Below, in pieces: positions 7,797 through 25,738 of a stretch of 30,587 nt of DNA. Under the pieces are notes generated by a model, which was not told where the DNA came from, ran no database searches, and worked only from the letters and a program-made list of their open reading frames with translations. Made by a program: the position numbers and the translations under genes. This DNA comes from a virus. How positions within the stretch are numbered: position 1 is the first letter of the stretch; the number at the start of each line of letters is the position of its first letter. Where the stretch lies: positions 1-30,587 of the IMG/VR virus record IMGVR_UViG_3300043496_000078. One strand, 5' to 3'.

Positions 7797-8858
7797 TCAG
7801 GCCGCGTTCTCCCACTTGTCCATGGCGGTGTCGATCAGCTTCCGCTTGCTGGCTTCGCGCGTGTAAGCAAGCGCCTGGGCGGGCGAGGCATGGCCGAGCA
7901 CCCGCATGATCTCGTCGACCGTGGCGCCGGCCTCGGCGAGCTTGACGCCGGCGGTCTTGCGCAAGCCGTGCAGGGTGTATTGCTCGGGGGCAATCCCCAC
8001 CTCGCGCAGCCGGGCCACGATCAGGTGCGTCAACCCGCCAGGCGAGTAGGGTTTCTTGAAGTAGTTCGTGCAGATGTGTTCGCGCACGCGCGGCGTCTGC
8101 GCCAGCAGCTTGGCGAGTTCCTTATGGGCGCGCAGCGGCACGGTCGCGCCGGTCTTCTGTTGCACGACGAGGATGCGTTTGGTCGTGCTGTTGTAGTCCG
8201 ACCATTTCATTGCCAACACATCGCCGCGGCGCTGGCCGGTGTAGAGCAGCAGATAAAATGCCAACCGCGTGTAGTCTGGGGCACCCTTGAGGAACAGCTG
8301 CTGGATCTTGTCAGGCCACGGCGCATGCGGCTTTTTCACCTTGTAGTGCAGTTCGACGTCGCGCGTCGGGTTGCTCGCGTCCTCGTCGATCCTGGCATCC
8401 TTCAACTTGAGCGCAAATTTCCAGAGGATCGAGATCTTGCGCAGCATGGAATCACCGCGGGCATCGCCATGTTTCTTGGCGATCTCGGCGCAGTATTGCG
8501 TGACATGGCTGCGCTTCACATCGGCGATCAGGCCGGCACCCAAATCGCGCTTGAGAATGTCGAGGGTGCGCCGATAGCTGAGCCTGGTCTCTTCGGCCAG
8601 GTTGCCGAATTTCCTCGAGGCCAGATCTTGCTCGATGACCCAACCGTTTGAGCCGGGCAGAAACGCTACCCGCGCCGGAATGTTTGAAACCGTGAGCGCC
8701 GGTGCTGCGTGCCCGTTCTCAGCCGCCGCACGGAGCTGCTCGTAATGCCGCAAATACTCTTGCGAACCTTCCGCGCCGCGCAGGCGCTGGCGATCGTGAC
8801 CAGGAAATCTGGCGTAGTGATATTTGCCCGCGCGCTGCACGTGCTTAAGAGTCGCCAT
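7797..8858 (-). CDS. int: tyrosine site-specific integrase
   Basis: A 353-residue tyrosine recombinase, the usual length for phage integrases. It catalyses attP-attB recombination. All catalytic residues are present: R210 (TGQRRGDVL), K235 (QQKTG), H297 and R300 (LHGLRKTAG), H323 (LGHASPAQ) and the nucleophile Y332 (LAYTREA). Residues 1-55 are the basic arm-binding part and about 75-170 the SAM-like core-binding domain. Its start overlaps the excisionase-like gene by 14 bp, so the two are expressed together from the promoter at 9135-9163. I saw no tRNA or obvious attP core beside it. Confidence 0.95.
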   Translation of the reverse strand: MATLKHVQRAGKYHYARFPGHDRQRLRGAEGSQEYLRHYEQLRAAAENGHAAPALTVSNIPARVAFLPGSNGWVIEQDLASRKFGNLAEETRLSYRRTLDILKRDLGAGLIADVKRSHVTQYCAEIAKKHGDARGDSMLRKISILWKFALKLKDARIDEDASNPTRDVELHYKVKKPHAPWPDKIQQLFLKGAPDYTRLAFYLLLYTGQRRGDVLAMKWSDYNSTTKRILVVQQKTGATVPLRAHKELAKLLAQTPRVREHICTNYFKKPYSPGGLTHLIVARLREVGIAPEQYTLHGLRKTAGVKLAEAGATVDEIMRVLGHASPAQALAYTREASKRKLIDTAMDKWENAA

Positions 8859-9123
8859 CGGTATTCATCCCTAAAATTACATCCATGGTATTACGGCGCC
8901 TGGGTTCGTCCTGTTTTTCCGGGCCGAGTGATTCGAAAGCAGCGTCGATCTCGAGCCGATCCCAAAGAACCATGCCCCGGACCCGTTTCGGTTTTGGCAT
9001 GAGGCCGTCGGCGACCAGTTGGAGGAAAGAAGTCGGGCTTACGCCGATATAAGCCGCTGCCCGCGCTGCTCGCAGACCCCGCGGCGGGTACGCCAGATGA
9101 TCCTGGAGTTTGTTGGACACCAC
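8845..9123 (-). CDS. excisionase/AlpA-like helix-turn-helix protein
   Basis: A 92-residue protein. GLRAARAAAYIGVSPTSFLQ, then LVADGLMPKPKRVRGMVLWDRLEIDAAFESL, is the HTH_17/AlpA winged-helix pattern common in excisionases. It overlaps the integrase start, the usual place for a recombination directionality factor. The start is GTG at 9123; the next in-frame ATG (residue 42) would remove the fold. The promoter leaves only about 5 nt of leader, so the message may be nearly leaderless. It could instead be a transcription activator. Confidence 0.75.
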   Translation of the reverse strand: MVSNKLQDHLAYPPRGLRAARAAAYIGVSPTSFLQLVADGLMPKPKRVRGMVLWDRLEIDAAFESLGPEKQDEPRRRNTMDVILGMNTDGDS

Positions 9124-9134
9124 GAGCCTCGCCG

Positions 9135-9163
9135 AATATAGTTTGAACCTATTTTGGTATCAA
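9135..9163 (-). promoter_or_regulatory. sigma70-like promoter of xis-int
   Basis: On the (-) strand, TTGATA (9163-9158) is followed by exactly 17 bp and TATATT (9140-9135). Transcription should start near 9128, about 5 nt before the GTG of the excisionase-like gene. The near-consensus boxes and correct direction make it one of the clearest promoters in the window. Confidence 0.7.
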
Positions 9164-9196
9164 GCCCAAATCGCCATTAACGCTGCCGGAAAGGCC

Positions 9197-9216
9197 CGCG
9201 GGCATTTGCGCCCGCG
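9197..9216. other. GC-rich hairpin at the border of the repeat array
   Basis: CGCGGGC (9197-9203) pairs with GCCCGCG (9210-9216) around a 6-nt loop. It sits between the xis-int promoter and the pentamer array. On the (-) strand it is followed by only a short T run (CTTT), so it is at best a weak terminator for leftward transcripts leaving the array. Confidence 0.4.
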
Positions 9217-9227
9217 TCCTCCGTTCG

Positions 9228-10563
9228 CCTGCCTTGCCAGGCCCAGCCCTGCCACGCCCCGCTCTGCCGCGCCTAGCCCTGCCCTGCCGGCCTTGCCAGC
9301 CCTGCCACGCCCCGCTCTGCCGCACCTAGCCCTGCCCTGTCCCGGACGGGCCATGCCCGGCCGCGCCCCGCCAGCCTTGCCTTGCTCCGCTTTTGCCGCG
9401 CCAAGCCATGCCACGCCGCGCCAAGCCCTGCCGGCTTTGCCTTGCCGCGCCTAGCCGTACCCGGACTCGGCATGCCATAGCGCGCCACGCAGAGACGTGC
9501 CTCGCCAGCCGTGCCTTGCCGAGCCATGCCGAGCCTAGCCTCGCCAGGCCATGCCGAGCCTTGCCAGCCTTGCCTCGCCCAACCCAACCCGGCCTCGTCG
9601 AGCCACGCCAGGCCCGGCCACTCCGCGCCAAGCCACGCCAGCCTTGCCTTGCCTTGCCAGCCTTGCCGAGCCAAGCGTTGCCGCGCTTGGCCTAGCCCGG
9701 CCTTGCCGAACCGCGCCAGCCTTGCCATGCCTTGCCCTGCCGTGCCCTGCCAAACCGAGGCTTGCCGGACTTCGCCATGCCCTACCTCGCCATGCCAGCC
9801 TTGCCTTGCCCGGCTCTGCCGGGACCAGCCAGACTTCGCACCGTCGCGCCGTGCCACGCACTGCAAGGCCGTGCCTAGCCGCGCCGGCCTTGCCTCGCCT
9901 TGCCGAACCGGACCGGGCTGTGCCTGGCCGCGCCAAGCCAAGCCCCGCCGGCCTCGCCTTGCCCAGTCATGCCGCGCCCTGCCAGAACTCGCCCTGCCTC
10001 GTCGAGCCAGGCCACGCTCGGCTTCGCCCGGCCAGCCTCGCGTTGCCTCGCCACGCCTTGCCGCGCCCTGCCGTGCCCGGCCAGGCCTCGCCCCGCCCCG
10101 CCAGCCTTGCCTCGCCACGCCTTGCCGAGCCTTGCCGCGCCCTGCCGTGCCGTGCCCCGCCGGCCTTGCCTAAACGAGCCGTGCCGAGCCTTGCCGGGAT
10201 CTGCATAGCCGAGCCAAGCCACACTCGGCCGAGTCCTGCCGCGCCGCGCCAAGCCATGCCGTGCCAGCCTCGCCGCGCCTAGCCATGCCGTGCCGAGCCT
10301 TGCCGCGCCTTGCCGGCCTTGCCACGCCGTGCCCCGGCTGCGCCTTACCCTGCCTAGCCGCGCATTGCCACGCCGAGCCAGCCTTGCCTTGCCGAGCCCT
10401 GCCCTGTTCTGTCGGACAGAGCCATGACCGGCCGAGCCGTGCCTTGCCAGCCTTGCGTTGCCGCGCCACGCCAAGCCGAGCCGCGCCGCACTGTGCCGAA
10501 CCTGGCCAGCCTTGCCATGCCGTGCTAAGCCCCGCCGCGACCCTGCCGGGCCGAACCTTGCCA
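9228..10563. repeat. degenerate GCC-rich pentanucleotide array, about 1.3 kb
   Basis: Almost the whole stretch follows CCNNG every 5 bp, read on (+) as GCCTTGCCNNGCC and so on. Frequent 4-bp variants give a 9-bp form CCAGCCTTG. The (+) strand is extremely C-rich and the (-) strand G-rich (GGCAAGGC-type). Because 3 codons equal nine bases and 15 bp equal three units, every frame gives the same cycling peptide (Gly-Lys-Ala-Arg-Gln on the minus strand). Long open frames therefore appear on both strands without implying genes. It lies between the leftward early operon and xis-int. Possible roles: origin, R-loop or spacer DNA, or simple expansion. No function is shown. Confidence 0.9.
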
Positions 10564-10569
10564 AAAACC

Positions 10570-11073
10570 TCATTGCGCCGGTCGGTTTTCCTGGTGCTCG
10601 ATTCGTTGCCGCAGCCGCGCGCGGGCGTCGCGAACGAGCTCGCAGATGTCGAGCAGCTCGTTGTATCTAGTCTCGAATGCCCGAAGCTCTCGTTCGGCTG
10701 CCACGAGGACTGCCAGCTGCAAGCTCTGGCTGTTCAGAACCTCGTTGATAGCGCGATAAGACTTGCCGTCATCGTTGACCGACAGGAATGCTCGGCGCGG
10801 CGGCTTATCCGTATCGGTGTCCTCGACCTGGATGATGCGGATCAAATCCCGCGCCTGATCGAGGCGGTATGCTTCCGCCGCGTTCTTGTCATTCCATTCG
10901 AAATATCGATGTAGCGGATTGCGTCGGTTGCGCGCCTCGTCGACAACGGCATGAGCCATTAAGCGACCGTTGTTCGCGGATCGAATTCGTTCCAGCTCGT
11001 TGCCGATCACAGTGGGATCGGCATCCTTGTTGTTGTGAAAGATTGTCGGTTCTCTGAAGACATAACGTAGCAT
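10570..11073 (-). CDS. conserved phage early protein, 167 aa, unknown function
   Basis: GGAGG (minus strand) lies just before the ATG. The protein contains VVDEARNRRNPLHRYFEWND, then NAAEAYRLDQARDLIRIIQV. I recognise this block from early regions of rhizobial and other alphaproteobacterial phages, where it is always hypothetical. The C-terminal third is a long charged helix (LAVLVAAERELRAFETRYNE and LVRDARARLRQRIEH). Its stop overlaps, by ATGA, an ATG that opens a frame into the pentamer array. It is the last firm gene of the recombination operon. Confidence 0.75.
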   Translation of the reverse strand: MLRYVFREPTIFHNNKDADPTVIGNELERIRSANNGRLMAHAVVDEARNRRNPLHRYFEWNDKNAAEAYRLDQARDLIRIIQVEDTDTDKPPRRAFLSVNDDGKSYRAINEVLNSQSLQLAVLVAAERELRAFETRYNELLDICELVRDARARLRQRIEHQENRPAQ

Positions 11074-11083
11074 TGTTCTCCTC

Positions 11084-11875
11084 CTATTCAGCGGCTTCTA
11101 GAATCGGTGGTGCTTTCCGCGGCGCGGTCTTCGGCACAGGACCGCCGCGCGCATGCGCGTCCCATTCGCGTTGCTCTGCTGGCGTTGCGATATGGAAGGC
11201 GCCGAACCATCCGCCTTTCTCGTTGCGCCAGTCCCCGATGCCGATGCCAGATCCAGCCTGGCGGACGAGGAACGCCAAGGCGTGAGGCGCAACCATCAGT
11301 GGATTGACATTGCCGGTGATGCGCAGCGCCCACGTGCTGAACTGCGCGCGATAGGCCAGGTTCGCGGTTTTGCGCAAGCCTGCACCGATGCGAACCATGT
11401 CTTCGCGCATCTCGGGCTGTGAACCATAGATGCGAACCAGCGGCATGTCGCAGATGGCGCCGGCGAGTGCCGGACGGACACGCACGACTTCGGCATCGAG
11501 CCAGAGCGCTTGCATCACATCGCTGCGCGGGACGCCGCGGTCCTTGTGAGCGCAACTTAGGATCGCCTTCTTCACGGCGGTCACCGGAAAGCCATAGATG
11601 CCGTCGCCCATGTCATAGAGCGATTGCAAGAAGTCCTTTTCGGGATCGCGCTTCTCTTTGGCTGTGCGCGTTGCGCCAGCCTGCGTTTTGAGCATGTCGC
11701 CCTTCGCCTTCTCGCTCCATGCATGGACGATGATGGGCGTGTCGCCGACAATCCAGAAGATGAAATCCTGCGATGGCGCTTTCTCGGAAAGAAGCTCGCC
11801 GAGCTGAATTCGATCTACCTTCTCGTTTGTTGTTGTCGGTTGCGGAGTTTCCACCTTCTTGCGCTTGAATGCCAT
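11084..11875 (-). CDS. conserved phage early protein in recombination operon
   Basis: Start at 11875 (MAFKRKKVETP) after GGAGGAC, giving 263 residues; the longer frame to 11929 has no such site. Core blocks: FIFWIVGDTPIIVHAWSEKA, DPEKDFLQSLY, YGFPVTAVKKAILS, and MREDMVRIG followed later by GIGDWR. This is a well-spread phage family that I recall without assigned function. It usually lies beside annealing protein and exonuclease genes, so a part in DNA recombination or protection is reasonable but unproven. Confidence 0.75.
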   Translation of the reverse strand: MAFKRKKVETPQPTTTNEKVDRIQLGELLSEKAPSQDFIFWIVGDTPIIVHAWSEKAKGDMLKTQAGATRTAKEKRDPEKDFLQSLYDMGDGIYGFPVTAVKKAILSCAHKDRGVPRSDVMQALWLDAEVVRVRPALAGAICDMPLVRIYGSQPEMREDMVRIGAGLRKTANLAYRAQFSTWALRITGNVNPLMVAPHALAFLVRQAGSGIGIGDWRNEKGGWFGAFHIATPAEQREWDAHARGGPVPKTAPRKAPPILEAAE

Positions 11876-11933
11876 TTGCCGCGTCCTCCTCGCTGTTGCC
11901 GGAAGCCGTCCGGCGGCGGTTCGTTTCAATGGA

Positions 11934-12152
11934 TTATTGTTTCAGCCTGGCCATTTGCGCGCCCTCGAGCGCGCCGCGCGCCATCCGCATGAAGGCTTCA
12001 TTCGATCCGTCGTGCGCGACGTGCGCCATTGCAGCGAGCAGCAGGGTTTCGCGCGCGATCTCCTTGCATTTGTCGGATTCGGATGTCTGCAAGCCGTCCA
12101 GATAGACCATGATGGCGTCGCCGATCTGCAGCTTGAGCTCGCCCAGACTCAT
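11934..12152 (-). CDS. small helical hypothetical protein, 72 aa
   Basis: MSLGELKLQIGDAIMVYLDG then KCKEIARETLLLAAMAHVAH and AFMRMARGALEGAQ: an all-helical, soluble protein. Its start overlaps the upstream stop by ATGA. Its place in the recombination operon suggests an accessory role. Family not recognised. Confidence 0.6.
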   Translation of the reverse strand: MSLGELKLQIGDAIMVYLDGLQTSESDKCKEIARETLLLAAMAHVAHDGSNEAFMRMARGALEGAQMARLKQ

Positions 12153-12664
12153 GACGCACCGCCGGTTGGCTCGTCCTTCTGCGGATAGTCGCGCGGCCCG
12201 GCGACCACGACGTGCGGCAGCGCTTCCTTCATGAGCTCGTCGGCTACCGCAGCGAGGCCAACCTTGTCGGCTTCGCCCGGCGCGCGCCGCTTGCCATCTT
12301 CGAGGATCTGCAGGAACACGGTGGCGCCGTTCTGCGCGCAGGTCTTCACCCGGATAGTTTCGCCTTTCCAGTAGTCGCGATCCTCCATCAGCTTGCCGAC
12401 GATATCGTCGTGGCCGGCGCGTTCGCGCTTGCCGGTTTCGTCGTGCTCGGCGCGTTCCTGCTCGAGCCGTGCCTCGAGGCGCTTGACCTCAACCTGGGCA
12501 TCGAGGGCCTGGCGGCGCCAGTTGTCGACCTCGGCCTGCAATGCGGCAATTGTCCTGGTCGCCTCGATCTGCTTATGGGCAACCCGCAACACCTCGTCGT
12601 CGTATTCGATCGGTGGCGGCACGTTGGCGATGCGCGGCATGCGGGGCTCGGGCTTGGTGTTCAT
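12149..12664 (-). CDS. coiled-coil protein of the early operon, 171 aa
   Basis: The ATG at 12664 has GGAGG upstream (GGAGGAATGATCCA spacing) and is preferred over the frame start at 12718. After a proline-rich N-terminus, residues about 30-105 form a long coiled coil (IAALQAEVDNWRRQAL, VKRLEARLEQERAEHDE). The C-terminal part has KTCAQNGATVFLQILEDGKR. It is coupled by ATGA to the next gene. Function unknown; it could be a scaffold for recombination proteins. Confidence 0.65.
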   Translation of the reverse strand: MNTKPEPRMPRIANVPPPIEYDDEVLRVAHKQIEATRTIAALQAEVDNWRRQALDAQVEVKRLEARLEQERAEHDETGKRERAGHDDIVGKLMEDRDYWKGETIRVKTCAQNGATVFLQILEDGKRRAPGEADKVGLAAVADELMKEALPHVVVAGPRDYPQKDEPTGGAS

Positions 12665-12736
12665 TGGATCATTCCTCCGTCGCAAGTTTTCGAGCACGGC
12701 CATGGGGGGTGTCTCCATTGCGCAGAATGAAACGCC

Positions 12737-13645
12737 TTACGCCTGGTCAGAGGGGCGGCGGGACTTGTCGTCCACGTGCTGGTCCGCCCCCGCCGCCTCC
12801 TCCTTGTTGGCTTCGCCGCCAGGGGTATGGACAGCGGACGAAGCAACCTCTTCCTTCGGCTGTTCCATCGGTGGAAATGTCTCGTCGGCGCTGGCCATGC
12901 CGTCGGCAATCGACTTCATCATCGCGATCACCGTGGCGACATCCGGTGCCAGCCAGTCCTTTGCCGCGCGCCCAACCACACGCTCGGCGCGGGCAAGCTC
13001 GACCGGAATTTTTGCCAGGCCCTGCACGGTACGCTCGCGCCAGCTGGCAAGATCCTTGCCGATCTTTTCGACCAGCGAGTTACGCGCTTGCTCGAAGGCG
13101 TAGTCGCAATAAATCTGCAGGCCGTTGCAGATGACGTTACGAATGCTTTTCGATTGGCCTATCTGGTAGGCGATGTCCTGCTGCCGATCAGCGTCTTTCG
13201 TCTTGAGCGACAACTGCGACTTGCGCTGGCGGTAAGCACGCTCCATCGAAAAGCCGGTCTCGATGTCGGTGAACCTGGCATAAAATGTCCAGGCATCGCC
13301 GACGTCGATCTCGCGCACCTCGACTGCACAATTGCCGAAGACGCGCGCGACATCGTTGGCGAGCTTGATCGACGGGCCTTCGATATAATCGACGCCGCCG
13401 TCTTTTTTGCGAACCGGAAAACGGTAAAGCCAATCGGAACCTGCAGCAGCGGCAAGGGCGCCGAGCTTTTGCAGAATGCGGGCCTCGTCGCGATAGACCG
13501 CGACCGGCTGCGCGCCGATCACGCGCTCGGAGATACCGGTGGTCGGCCGCACCAGCGCATGGCCCTGCGGCTGGTTGGGTTGTGCGCCAGCATTGGCAAA
13601 CTCGTCGAGTGCCTTGCGCTGATCGCGGCGTTCAATGTCGTTCAT
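12737..13645 (-). CDS. candidate single-strand annealing/recombination protein
   Basis: A 302-residue protein immediately downstream of, and ATGA-coupled to, the YqaJ-type exonuclease. The core reads GGVDYIEGPSIKLANDVARVFGN, then AWTFYARFTDIETGFSMER, and DIAYQIGQSKSIRNVICNGL. The tail is Glu/Ala-rich and acidic. In phages a 5'-3' exonuclease is normally paired with an annealing protein of the RecT, Erf or Rad52-like groups. Position argues for that role. I do not see a signature that fixes the group, and some databases may list it only as hypothetical. Confidence 0.6.
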   Translation of the reverse strand: MNDIERRDQRKALDEFANAGAQPNQPQGHALVRPTTGISERVIGAQPVAVYRDEARILQKLGALAAAAGSDWLYRFPVRKKDGGVDYIEGPSIKLANDVARVFGNCAVEVREIDVGDAWTFYARFTDIETGFSMERAYRQRKSQLSLKTKDADRQQDIAYQIGQSKSIRNVICNGLQIYCDYAFEQARNSLVEKIGKDLASWRERTVQGLAKIPVELARAERVVGRAAKDWLAPDVATVIAMMKSIADGMASADETFPPMEQPKEEVASSAVHTPGGEANKEEAAGADQHVDDKSRRPSDQA

Positions 13646-14604
13646 GCGACGTCCTCATTCTTGGGTTTTGAGAGAATCCGCAGCACACGGAAGTCTGCCG
13701 CCGGCGCGGTGTAGGCTTTGCGATGCTGCAGTTTCCAGGAGATACGCCGGCCGTCGGCAAGGCGGCCATAGGTGTGATGCGCGAGCTTGGCCTCGAGCTC
13801 GGTCTTGATGATGTCTTCCTGCGCCTCGAGCCGCTTCCTGCCGGACTGCGTCTCGATCAGTTCCTCGACCAGGACGAGCGCGCGATTGTCTTTGGTGAGG
13901 TCGAGCTCGGTGCCATCGTCGGTGGGATACAGGAGGCGCACCAGCTCGGCATCGCGACCGAAGTCGACCGGCGGCATGATGTTCGGCGTGAGGTAGTTGT
14001 CATGGAATTCGCGCACCTTGCGCTCGATGAAGCCCTCGAGCTCGGGGTCGCGGGCAATATTGAAAGTGCGGAAGTGCCAACTGTATTCGCTGTTGATGAG
14101 CACGACGAGCATGCCCCAGGCGCAATCCGCCAGCATCATCTCGTTGAGGGTTTGCAGGTGGTACTGCCGCGGCGGCTGGGCGTCGCCGTATTCGACCGAG
14201 TCGTTCGGATCGAGCAGCCACTTGTCCTGGAACACGCGCCGGCTGATTACCTTGGCCTGAATAATGCCGGGGCCATCGCGATCAGGGCTGATGGCGAAAC
14301 CGTCGGGCGTCGCGCCCATGCCACGATCGAGATCGCGCAGGAATATCTTCGCGCGGGTCGCCTGCATGTCGGGGAATGTTTCGCTCAGCGCTTCGAACGC
14401 CGAGGCCTCGCCCCATCGGCCTTTTTTGAGCGTAGGGGAATCGACTAGCGGCGGCCGCAAGCCTTTCTTTTCGGCAAATAGCACCGCCGCCGATGCGAAT
14501 GCGCCTTCGCCGCATACCGTGGCGACATCGCTGGCCGTGATCACTGGCTGGCGCAGTGCCGACCATTGCTCATAGCTCTCGATCGGAATGCGCTCGACGG
14601 TCAT
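13642..14604 (-). CDS. YqaJ-type viral exonuclease with Gln in place of the ExK glutamate
   Basis: A 320-residue lambda-exo/YqaJ-fold nuclease expected to trim double-strand ends for annealing. Visible motifs: ITASDVATVCG (22-32), GRWGEASAFEAL with E66, ATPDG with D101, IIQAKVISRRVFQDKW (114-129) with K118, and PPRQYHLQTLNEMM. The usual E-x-K is here Q116-A-K118 (codon CAG). This may mark a subfamily or a loss of activity. ATGA overlaps on both sides. The C-terminal 100 residues form a helical extension. Confidence 0.85.
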   Translation of the reverse strand: MTVERIPIESYEQWSALRQPVITASDVATVCGEGAFASAAVLFAEKKGLRPPLVDSPTLKKGRWGEASAFEALSETFPDMQATRAKIFLRDLDRGMGATPDGFAISPDRDGPGIIQAKVISRRVFQDKWLLDPNDSVEYGDAQPPRQYHLQTLNEMMLADCAWGMLVVLINSEYSWHFRTFNIARDPELEGFIERKVREFHDNYLTPNIMPPVDFGRDAELVRLLYPTDDGTELDLTKDNRALVLVEELIETQSGRKRLEAQEDIIKTELEAKLAHHTYGRLADGRRISWKLQHRKAYTAPAADFRVLRILSKPKNEDVA

Positions 14605-17443: not shown

Positions 17444-17634
17444 ACCCGTACCTGTTGCTGCAGGCACGCATCGAGGCCCGGTCGGTGCTGTTTAACGCGG
17501 CCGAATATGACTCGCTCGGCGAGGCGATCGATCCGCTGCTGGCCTATGCCGACGACAGCGGCATTACCCAGGACATAGGTTCGGACAATGTGGTGGCCAT
17601 GGTTTTGAAAGGTTTTGGCGTTGATGTCGGTTGA
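17440..17634 (+). CDS. small acidic hypothetical protein, 64 aa
   Basis: MNPYLLLQARIEARSVLFNA, then GEAIDPLLAYADDSG and VVAMVLKGFGVDVG: soluble, acidic and helical. The start overlaps the upstream stop by ATGA, and its end overlaps the next gene by 11 bp. No family recognised. Confidence 0.6.
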   Translation: MNPYLLLQARIEARSVLFNAAEYDSLGEAIDPLLAYADDSGITQDIGSDNVVAMVLKGFGVDVG

Positions 17635-18355
17635 AAGCCGGACCATAGGTTGGTTCTCTTGCGGTGCCGCATCTGCCGTCGCGGTAAAACTCACACATGC
17701 GCTGCCGGTCTATTGCGATACCGGATCCGAACATCCCGACAACGTGCGTTTCCTAGCAGACTGCGAGCGATGGTTCGGCTGCACGGTGAAGCGGCTGAAA
17801 TCGGAACGCTATAAGGACACCTGGGACGTATGGCGAAGACGTCGGTATCTCGCCGGTGTCGACGGCGCGCTCTGCACGGTCGAATTGAAGGTAATGCCGC
17901 GGCTTGCTTTCCAGCGACCCGACGATCAGCACGTTTTCGGCTACACCGCCGACGCTCTTGACATGGCGCGGGCCGAGCGGCTGCGCGCTACCTTCCCGGA
18001 GCTGATCATCCATACCCCACTGATTGAGCGCGGCCTAAGCAAAGCCGCGTGCCTCGACATCATCCAGCGCGCGGGCATCGCGTTGCCGCCGCTCTATGCG
18101 ATGGGGTTCCAGAACAACAACTGCCTACCGTGCGTGAAGGCGACGAGCCCGGACTATTGGGCATTGGTGCGCCGCCGGTTCCCAGACAAGTTCGATCGCA
18201 TGGCCAAACTATCGCGTGAGCTTGACGTGCGACTGTGCCGCCTAGAGGGCGAGCGCGCGTTCATCGATGAGATACCGCTCGACCATCCGACTATCCATCC
18301 AATCCAGCCGGCCTGCGACTTCCTCTGCTACATCGCGGAGGTGGATTTGCAATGA
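17624..18355 (+). CDS. PAPS reductase-like ATP-pyrophosphatase-fold protein
   Basis: A 243-residue protein of the adenine nucleotide alpha hydrolase superfamily. Residues 10-18 (WFSCGAASA) are the modified SGGxxS-type P-loop; PVYCDTGSEHPDN (28-40) follows the second strand; CTVELKVMPRL (84-94) and a CxxC at 167-170 (NNNCLPC) complete the PAPS-reductase pattern. Relatives reduce sulfate esters or, as DndC, help place sulfur in DNA. Phage copies have no proven job. ATG 17624 is preferred over TTG 17615. It is ATGA-coupled to the helicase. Confidence 0.75.
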   Translation: MSVESRTIGWFSCGAASAVAVKLTHALPVYCDTGSEHPDNVRFLADCERWFGCTVKRLKSERYKDTWDVWRRRRYLAGVDGALCTVELKVMPRLAFQRPDDQHVFGYTADALDMARAERLRATFPELIIHTPLIERGLSKAACLDIIQRAGIALPPLYAMGFQNNNCLPCVKATSPDYWALVRRRFPDKFDRMAKLSRELDVRLCRLEGERAFIDEIPLDHPTIHPIQPACDFLCYIAEVDLQ

Positions 18356-24454: not shown

Positions 24455-25738
24455 TTGGAACCAAATTTGTGGCCTGCAGACAAGGTTGAGCGGTGGCCGA
24501 TCGATCGGCTGGTTCCGTACGCGCGCAACGCGCGGACCCACAGCGATGAGCAGATTGACCAGGTTGCGGCGTCGATCCGGGAGTGGGGTTGGACGAATCC
24601 GGTTCTCGTCGGGGAGGATGGCGGGATCATTGCGGGCCATTGCCGGGTGCTGGCGGGCAGGCAACTCGGTCTGGCCGAGGTGCCGGTGATGTTGGCGGTC
24701 GGTTGGAGCGAGGCGCAGAAGCGCGCGTATGTCCTGGCCGACAATCAATTGGCGCTGAACGCAGGCTGGAACCCGGAGTTGTTGCGGCTCGAGCTGGGCG
24801 AGTTGCAGGGGCTGGGGTTTGATATCGGGCTGATTGGATTCGGCGACATACGTCCCACGGGCTTGACGGATCCGGATGCTACTCCGGAACTGCCTGCCAT
24901 TCCCATCTCGCTACTCGGCGATCTATGGATTTTGGGACGGCATCGGCTGTTATGTGGCGATGCGACTACCAAGGCGGATGTCGAGCGGGTGACCACTGGG
25001 GTGCAACCCCATTTGATGGTAACCGACCCACCGTATGGCGTCGACTATGACGCCGCCTGGCGGGTCCGCGCCGGCCTCAACAATCCGACGGCGGCAAACG
25101 GCAAGGTAATCAACGATGATCGGGTCGACTGGCGCGACGCTTGGGCGCTGTTCCCCGGCCATGTCGCCTATGTCTGGCATAGCGGTCTGCACTCGGCAGA
25201 GGTGCTCGACTCGTTAGCGGCACGGCGGCTGCGCATGCGGGCGCAAATTGTTTGGGTCAAGACCCGGCCAGTGATCGGGCGCGGTGCCTACCATTGGCAG
25301 CATGAGCCGTGCGCCTATGCGGTTGAGGATGGTGCCGACGATCGCTGGCGTTTCATCCCCGAGCACGAAATTCTGTCCTATGCGGTTGGCGATGGCAGAG
25401 CGGAATGGCATGGCGGCCGCAAGCAATCGACCGTGTGGCATATCGAGCACATCAAGTCGGAGACTGGGCATTCGGCGCAGAAGCCGGTCGAGTGCATGAA
25501 GCGGCCGATCGAGAACAACTCCTCGCCCGGCCACGCGGTCTATGATCCGTTCGTCGGCTCGGGCACCACGATCATCGCCGCTGAGACGACCGGTCGCGCA
25601 TGTTACGCGCTCGAAATCAATCCCGCCTATTGCGACGTCTCGATCGAGCGCTGGCAGAACTTCACCGGCGAGCGGGCGACGCTCGACGGGCGCGCCTTTG
25701 AGGACATAGCCGCCGCTCGGCGGCAGGAGGCGGCATGA
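24455..25738 (+). CDS. ParB-N domain fused to beta-class DNA methyltransferase
   Basis: A 427-residue protein starting with TTG. Residues 12-110 are a ParB/Srx-like N-terminal domain (PIDRLVPYARNARTHSDEQI, GGIIAGHCRVLAGRQLG with the GHxR core, and LADNQLALN). Residues 150-410 are a methyltransferase with DPPYG (191-195) before DPFVGSGTT (364-372), the beta-class order; DPPY fits N6-adenine or N4-cytosine. Phages often place this fusion just before the terminase. It may modify phage DNA or mark packaging sites. ATGA-coupled to the small terminase candidate. Confidence 0.9.
   Translation: MEPNLWPADKVERWPIDRLVPYARNARTHSDEQIDQVAASIREWGWTNPVLVGEDGGIIAGHCRVLAGRQLGLAEVPVMLAVGWSEAQKRAYVLADNQLALNAGWNPELLRLELGELQGLGFDIGLIGFGDIRPTGLTDPDATPELPAIPISLLGDLWILGRHRLLCGDATTKADVERVTTGVQPHLMVTDPPYGVDYDAAWRVRAGLNNPTAANGKVINDDRVDWRDAWALFPGHVAYVWHSGLHSAEVLDSLAARRLRMRAQIVWVKTRPVIGRGAYHWQHEPCAYAVEDGADDRWRFIPEHEILSYAVGDGRAEWHGGRKQSTVWHIEHIKSETGHSAQKPVECMKRPIENNSSPGHAVYDPFVGSGTTIIAAETTGRACYALEINPAYCDVSIERWQNFTGERATLDGRAFEDIAAARRQEAA

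What the first reader, a model, noticed from the sequence alone, without database searches (positions are those of the whole stretch)
9228..10563. 1.3-kb degenerate pentamer array with extreme strand bias
Nearly every 5 bp carries CC on (+) and GG on (-), with occasional 4-bp units. It is far longer and more degenerate than a typical simple repeat, so it seems old and maintained rather than newly slipped. It lies between the leftward early operon and xis-int. Leftward readthrough would make a G-rich RNA able to form R-loops or two-tier quadruplexes. It may be an origin, a structural spacer, a recombination hot spot, or a protein-binding track with 5/10-bp helical phasing. None of this is shown.
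Basis: partly seen in the sequence, partly recalled or inferred. Interest (0 to 1): 0.8.

Follow-up and report, generated by a model that had tools for sequence, protein, structure and literature searches.

The report
Phage VIPR guide-RNA array
The strange repeat is a bank of about twenty guide RNAs of a newly described, CRISPR-like phage weapon (VIPR), which phages appear to use against rival phages.

Summary
The array is real: about 270 units, read leftward as (GGY NN)n, with a pyrimidine at position 3 in 245 of 246 five-base units. It does not look like a decayed microsatellite. In IMG/VR, GGYNN arrays sit beside two phage gene families, nearly always on the genes' sense strand (exceptions are told). 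One family (phrog_4652; window 11084-11929) matches the solved SUSP1 Vipr protein (profile E 6e-27) and models as a Csm3/Cas7-type RAMP (Z 10.6). The other (phrog_15946; window 10570-11073) models as a winged-helix-like protein. A 2026 preprint (PMC13142463, main text read) describes such loci as VIPR: vrRNAs of 9-16 GGY/NN repeats that read DNA by their NN pairs with a 1-nt skip. I file the window as a VIPR locus: vipr, a vap-like gene and about twenty guides. The 'occasional 4-bp units' look like guide boundaries (AA-GGCY-GGC). One guide matches the active-site end of another phage's integrase gene at 23 of 26 coded bases; another decodes to an integrase motif. No perfect target was found. 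New here: this member, its tail-less junction layout, a vap-like family that SUSP1 lacks, integrase targeting. Its VIPR type could not be assigned.

The parts
9228..10563 (-). vrRNA-type array: about 270 GGYNN units on the minus strand, about twenty guides in tandem
   Evidence: same grammar as VIPR vrRNAs (PMC13142463)
11084..11929 (-). vipr: RAMP-fold protein, phrog_4652 family. The listed start is TTG; an ATG 18 codons in (about 11875) is as likely
   Evidence: 36pp_D SUSP1 Vipr, profile E 6.2e-27; Csm3, Z 10.6
10570..11073 (-). vap-like gene: winged-helix-like protein with a long C-terminal helix, phrog_15946 family
   Evidence: (pLDDT 94.6)
9433..9506 (-). guide 15: NN = GA AC TC GT GC AT AT GA CG AC TA GC AA AA; best target is an integrase gene in L059 (8038-8076, +). 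5 of its 14 five-base units depart from GGY
9797..9885 (-). guide 10: read on the other strand it decodes to [FL]RLG[HQ][RS]SPAVTL[RS]V[Y*]A, an integrase-like motif
10449..10507 (-). example of a guide (12 units) closed by the 4-nt junction unit GGCT; 20 such junctions lie in the array
8845..9123 (-). excisionase / regulator-like gene next beyond the array
   Evidence: phrog_25900, phrog_66
7797..8858 (-). tyrosine integrase of the window phage itself
   Evidence: (PF00589)

Best explanation
The array is the guide-RNA bank of a phage VIPR (Viral Interference Programmable Repeat) locus. Leftward transcription through vipr, the vap-like gene and the array yields an RNA of GGY/NN units. By analogy with SUSP1 VIPR, Vipr (a Cas7-like RAMP) would polymerise on each stretch of about 9-16 units, hold the GGY bases, and present each NN pair to DNA, with one target base skipped per repeat. 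Bound targets would be repressed. Here about twenty guides lie head to tail without long tails, parted by a 4-nt unit in the context AA-GGCY-GGC, which I infer to be a guide boundary or processing mark. At least two guides appear to be aimed at integrase genes of competing temperate phages. Shown here: array grammar, sense orientation, linkage to vipr/vap families, RAMP fold, junctions, one significant target. Inferred: transcription, processing, RNP formation, repression, and use against rivals.
For: (1) GGYNN grammar on the sense strand, Y in 245 of 246 units. (2) Array-blind fetch by the phrog_15946 motif: a sense array in 104 of 120 loci, 76 of 91 protein clusters; antisense 0 of 120, shuffled 0 of 120, distant windows 0 of 523. 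(3) vipr-family genes (strict hits) in 80 of 120 loci fetched by array pattern alone, 90 of 109 fetched by the vap motif, 0 of 39 CCGNN control loci; on the array's sense strand in 72 of 74 hits within 1 kb. (4) Family profile hits 36pp_D 'SUSP1 Vipr protein' E 6.2e-27 and the SUSP1 record E 9.5e-30; four arrays of 12-15 units lie on the vipr strand there. (5) Model matches Csm3/Cas7 subunits, Z 10.6, 153 residues, 3.8 A. (6) Junctions 10-11 units apart most often in 109 arrays, in line with 9-16 repeats per vrRNA. (7) NN pairs fit codon positions 1-2 best in 50 of 57 loci, the window included. (8) Guide 15 to an integrase gene: 23/26 at skip 1, 19 or fewer at skips 0, 2, 3 and reversed; 24/28, E 1.2e-4, with wobble skips.
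Against: No expression data. No perfect target: three exact scans of viral contigs gave 0, 397 genomes of the order of a Rhizobium MAG gave 0. Over all 335 guides skip 1 is hardly above control: E<0.1 in 20 guides against 13 for reversed order and 5 for shuffled; 8-NN seeds 43 against 38 shuffled. The L059 hit has a chance of about 0.04 over 335 guides, 0.002 over the window's 14. The L059 protein scores under Pfam's integrase cut-off (22.4 against 27.1 bits). 16 of 120 vap loci show no array by the fixed model. Two vipr hits lie antisense to the array (L081 partial, L036 good). The window's Vipr alone hits 36pp only at E 0.26. No tail structure and no Rfam match were found.
Confidence: 0.95

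Rival explanations
1. A DNA track for the adjacent winged-helix-like protein: the protein coats the array as duplex DNA (partition, silencing or replication control), and no guide RNA is involved.
For: The phrog_15946 gene is next to the array and its model resembles winged-helix DNA-binding proteins; linkage in 104 of 120 loci.
Against: Of 80 loci fetched by array, 55 lack this gene, and 45 of those 55 have the vipr family. Strict sense orientation with the array upstream (47), downstream (46) or on both sides (11) is not needed for duplex binding. The NN pairs carry codon-like information. SUSP1 has arrays without this gene.
Confidence: 0.03
2. An old microsatellite or minisatellite that expanded by slippage and decays neutrally.
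For: A 53-bp near-duplicate inside the array (9243-9371, 88% match) shows that segments do duplicate.
Against: Neutral decay should hit all five positions alike; here GGY is kept at 89-99.6% and NN is near random. The equal-composition control CCGNN has 41 stretches in all, against at least 120 for GCCNN (a capped scan). Fixed linkage and orientation.
Confidence: 0.01
3. A transcription or replication element of the G-rich strand itself (R-loop, quadruplex, Rho-type polarity), not a guide bank.
For: Strong strand skew; one of three folded stretches is more stable than shuffles; orientation follows transcription.
Against: Does not explain the conserved Y, the 10-11-unit junction spacing, the vipr linkage or the integrase match.
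Confidence: 0.01

Closest known systems
VIPR, Escherichia phage SUSP1 (type II in PMC13142463; record KT454805)
   Same: Vipr-family RAMP gene; GGY/NN arrays of 12-15 units on the vipr strand in the flanking intergenic DNA.
   Different: SUSP1 has four separate vrRNAs with 3' tails; the window has one compact 1.3-kb array of about twenty guides parted by 4-nt junctions. The SUSP1 gene beside vipr belongs to another family (matches a profile of the phrog_5926-like genes at E 2.4e-22) and the window's phrog_15946 profile finds nothing in SUSP1.
VIPR staggered or hammerhead-interspersed arrays (other types in PMC13142463)
   Same: Several guides in one array; vap genes of some types are predicted DNA-binding proteins (stated in the main text).
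   Different: Cannot be told: figures and supplement were not available to me. No Rfam ribozyme in the window stretch 8800-12000.
Class 1 CRISPR-Cas (Csm3/Cas7 subunits)
   Same: RAMP fold with a glycine-rich loop; RNA-guided complex by analogy.
   Different: No identical repeats with long spacers; gapped 2-base code instead of contiguous pairing; only two genes in the module.
Cheoctovirus mycobacteriophages and Gordonia phages (Donkeykong, Quico, Brocalys, DRBy19, UmaThurman, Ecliptus)
   Same: Same vap-like family, arrays and a vipr-family gene.
   Different: Shorter arrays (47-70 units in the six parsed); genes annotated as hypothetical proteins.

Membership tests
VIPR | Vipr gene (RAMP homologue with G-loop) | tested here: met
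   Profile to 36pp_D SUSP1 Vipr E 6.2e-27; RAMP fold Z 10.6; invariant G226, G230, R235, G243 in the alignment
VIPR | Intergenic RNA-coding array of alternating GGY/NN units | tested here: met
VIPR | 9-16 repeats per guide | tested here: met
   Junction spacing peaks at 10-11 units over 109 arrays. In the window segments range from 2 to 21 units, 11 of 25 within 9-16 counting the closing unit
VIPR | Accessory vap gene | tested here: inconclusive
   A linked winged-helix-like gene is there; whether it is one of the paper's vap1-6 could not be checked
VIPR | NN pairs match a target with a 1-nt skip | tested here: inconclusive
   One window guide: 24/28, E 1.2e-4, skip 1 only; exact and genome scans empty
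VIPR | Structured 3' tail on the guide (type II) | tested here: inconclusive
   No long tail between guides; 3' flank fold z -0.45; the paper says array architecture varies by type
VIPR | Guides are expressed and bound by Vipr | not testable with these tools
   needs RNA
CRISPR-Cas class 1 | Identical direct repeats parted by unique spacers of some 30 nt | tested here: not met
Simple sequence repeat | Units decay alike at all positions | tested here: not met
   GGY kept, NN near random

The most novel reading that the evidence does not exclude
A VIPR variant in which about twenty guides are packed head to tail without tails, parted only by a one-base-short unit (AA-GGCY-GGC) that serves as the processing or boundary signal, with a phrog_15946 winged-helix-like accessory protein, and with guides aimed at the catalytic codons of integrase genes, so that the prophage stops rival temperate phages from integrating or being kept.
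Probability: 0.45. Interest if true: 0.75.

Novelty: new member of a known kind. Interest (0 to 1): 0.62.

Why it matters
VIPR was described only in 2026, from loci characterised in E. coli and Pseudomonas. The window gives a compact bank of about twenty guides, and the same family lies in cultured phages of Mycobacterium smegmatis and Gordonia, where at least one array is annotated as a gene. That makes guide processing, targeting and phage-phage interference testable in ordinary laboratory hosts. It also shows a practical lesson: degenerate pentamer arrays in phage genomes should be read as possible guide banks, and their NN pairs can be decoded to name the rival gene.

Tried and rejected
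Led nowhere: single-protein search for vap relatives in viral contigs found none by tblastn; Pfam, NCBIfam and PADLOC gave no family for vipr or vap (the best Pfam and NCBIfam rows were single-member chance-level hits); Rfam found nothing at 8800-12000; six paper searches before the Vipr hit found nothing on GCCNN or pentamer arrays in phages (listings only). Two later searches found only the one VIPR paper.

Considered and dropped: coding sequence (long ORFs are a by-product of the 5-base period; not tested further); winged-helix DNA track; Chi- or KOPS-like polarity element; Rho-type polarity; RecT-like filament track (replaced once the RAMP fold and the Vipr match were seen). A word-to-residue covariation between array variants and the vap recognition helix was looked for by eye and not seen.

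Target search, against my reading: one search shows hardly more 8-NN hits at skip 1 than shuffled (43 against 38). In one search seven guides pass E<1e-3 at skip 3 and one at skip 2; one search shows that all seven skip-3 hits are a locus's own unmasked array, and the skip-2 hit is L358 to L293. A guide of L364 matches the codons for EDMVRVGM in 11 of 11 vipr genes it hits, but these are one event, at a score that is chance level. The decoded guide-15 peptide found no phage protein at E<=10. L407 and L408 were fetched with a pattern made from guide 15, so their matches are not independent. Of the matches to the guide-10 peptide, 12 of 17 records were listed and 11 of those 12 are annotated as integrase, one as gp33; I chose residues at its ambiguous positions with the motif in mind. 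The HMM survey fits its model to each flank and so over-calls; I rely on the fixed model.

Absences told here only: the PDB fold library (to April 2026) did not list 36pp among the rows shown.

Full report
What was seen. At 9228-10563 the + strand repeats GCCNN, with 4-base units now and then. Composition, autocorrelation and pattern counts confirm it. Read leftward it is GGY NN: G 220/246, G 228/246, C or T 245/246, while positions 4 and 5 are mixed. A neutral satellite should decay alike at all five positions; this one does not.

Context. The record is a 30,587-base virus sequence. Leftward genes run: YqaJ/RecE-like exonuclease 13642-14604, phrog_3657 12737-13645, an unassigned ORF 12149-12718, phrog_4652 11084-11929, phrog_15946 10570-11073, the array, an xis-like gene 8845-9123, integrase 7797-8858.

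Relatives by array. GCCNNx9 hits at least 120 stretches of IMG/VR (capped scan); the equal-composition control CCGNNx9 hits 41 in all. BLAST of the array finds 31 phage records (26 Mycobacterium, 5 Gordonia), while the phrog_15946 protein finds 33 records (27 Mycobacterium, 5 Gordonia, 1 cyanophage). That overlap was the first hint of linkage.

Relatives by gene, blind to the array. A DNA motif of the phrog_15946 protein gave 120 stretches (capped; 11 of the 120 had also come from the array scan). With one fixed array model and 800-base flanks, 104 of 120 have an array on the gene's sense strand, 0 of 120 on the antisense strand, 0 of 120 in shuffles, and 0 of 523 distant windows on either strand; 76 of 91 clusters at 70% identity. 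The array lies upstream only in 47, downstream only in 46, on both sides in 11. Of the 16 without one, several have cut-off flanks and some carry other 5-base words, such as GGANN in L345 (judged by eye).

The second gene. Of 80 array-first loci with a clear array, 25 hold phrog_15946, all 25 with the array in sense; 45 of the other 55 hold a phrog_4652-like gene. Strict hits (E<1e-8, coverage 0.6 or more) number 80 of 120 array-first loci, 90 of 109 gene-first loci, 0 of 39 control loci and 5 of 120 array-like stretches from bacterial and archaeal genomes. Within 1 kb of an array the gene is in sense in 72 of 74 hits; the exceptions are a partial hit (L081) and a good one (L036). A third family, phrog_5926-like, stands beside some arrays.

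What the second gene is. A 59-sequence profile headed by the window protein hits PDB 36pp_D, 'SUSP1 Vipr protein', at E 6.2e-27; the window protein alone reaches only E 0.26. Its model (pLDDT 88.3) matches Csm3 and other Cas7-type subunits: Foldseek best E 2.7e-4, VIA-align Z 10.6 over 153 residues at 3.8 A. The phrog_15946 protein has a confident model (pLDDT 94.6); no PDB match is strong (Foldseek none at E<=0.001), but most rows listed are winged-helix domains at Z 3.5-5.

The known system. PMC13142463 (a 2026 preprint; I read the whole main text; figures and supplement not seen) describes VIPR: a Vipr RAMP protein, usually one vap gene, and vrRNAs of 9-16 YNNGG repeats. The NN pairs pair with double-stranded DNA with one skipped target base per repeat, mostly the codon wobble base. 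It reports repression of targets, phage interference, natural targets in competing phages and prophages, and seven types. As a positive control I took the SUSP1 record: my profile finds its vipr (E 9.5e-30) and my parser finds four arrays of 12-15 units on the vipr strand, one upstream and three downstream, as the paper says. SUSP1's neighbouring gene belongs to the phrog_5926-like family (E 2.4e-22), not to the window's phrog_15946.

Anatomy of the window's guides. The array splits into 25 segments at non-5-base units. Twenty 4-nt units are preceded by AA in 15 and GA in 3, read GGCT or GGCC in 19, and are followed by GGC in 20; AA occurs in 27 of the other 226 units. Over 109 arrays with three or more such units, spacing peaks at 10 and 11 units (114 and 107 of 610 intervals). 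I infer that they mark guide ends. No long tail or ribozyme is seen.

Decoding. In 57 loci with enough data, the NN pairs fit dinucleotides of codon positions 1-2 best in 50, positions 2-3 in 7, positions 3-1 in none; the window is among the 50. This is what the 1-nt, wobble-skip rule predicts, and was not aimed at a chosen target. Guide 15 (9506-9433) matches L059 8038-8076 at 23 of 26 bases with skip 1, against 19 for skips 0, 2, 3 and reversed order over the loci in hand. With the last pair added it is 24/28, E 1.2e-4 in 5.0 million positions, the second best of 335 guides. L059 was fetched for its array, not for this match. The site is in frame, skips fall on wobble bases, and the protein ends HDTSSAIIDRNYAKHI, the active-site end of an integrase; its Pfam integrase score is 22.4 bits, below the cut-off of 27.1, E 1.1e-4. 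Guide 10 (9885-9797), read on the other strand, decodes to [FL]RLG[HQ][RS]SPAVTL[RS]V[Y*]A, like the integrase motif recalled as LGHSSPxVTLxVYAH; 11 of the 12 listed phage hits of that peptide are annotated as integrases, at E 3-6. The best guide of all, L329 to L354, matches 23/24, E 1.3e-6.

Limits. No guide has a perfect target. The bulk statistics over all guides barely separate skip 1 from controls, as expected if the true rivals are not among the loci in hand. Expression, processing and repression are inferred from SUSP1. The type is open. Confidence that this is a VIPR locus is high; confidence in the integrase aim is moderate.

Noticed in passing
window 17615-18355 (+): PAPS-reductase-like gene (phrog_424) that also matches PADLOC SspD, a phosphorothioation-system protein, at E 1.3e-15.
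   Followed up: no
window 24455-25738 (+): One ORF that joins a ParB-like and a DNA-methyltransferase domain (phrog_498).
   Followed up: no
window 9243-9371: A 53-base near-duplicate within the array (88% match): guides can be duplicated as a block.
   Followed up: no
L403 6890-7235 (Donkeykong record about 36889-37234): Annotated gene 48 (36870-37256) lies over the array and is probably not a gene.
   Followed up: partly
L103, L089, L097, L102, L108, L113, L123: A phrog_5926-like family, the same as the SUSP1 gene beside vipr, stands by arrays that lack phrog_15946; hhalign sees no kinship between the two accessory families (probability 0.4%).
   Followed up: partly
L364 array, 8-NN guide GA GA AT GT CG GT GG AT: Decodes to EDMVRVGM, a conserved stretch of Vipr, and matches 11 vipr genes of other loci in frame: possibly VIPR against VIPR, but at a chance-level score.
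   Followed up: partly
L396, L388, L345, L351, L355, L362: Arrays with other words (GCANN, GGTNN, GGANN, GTTNN or little beyond a G), and in L351 and L396 a recurring GGCAGT or GCCAGT about every 55 bases.
   Followed up: no
Genome-contig scan, L129-L248: Most GCCNNx11 stretches in bacterial and archaeal genomes have no vipr nearby (strict hits in 5 of 120); many look like low-complexity coding repeats (seen).
   Followed up: no
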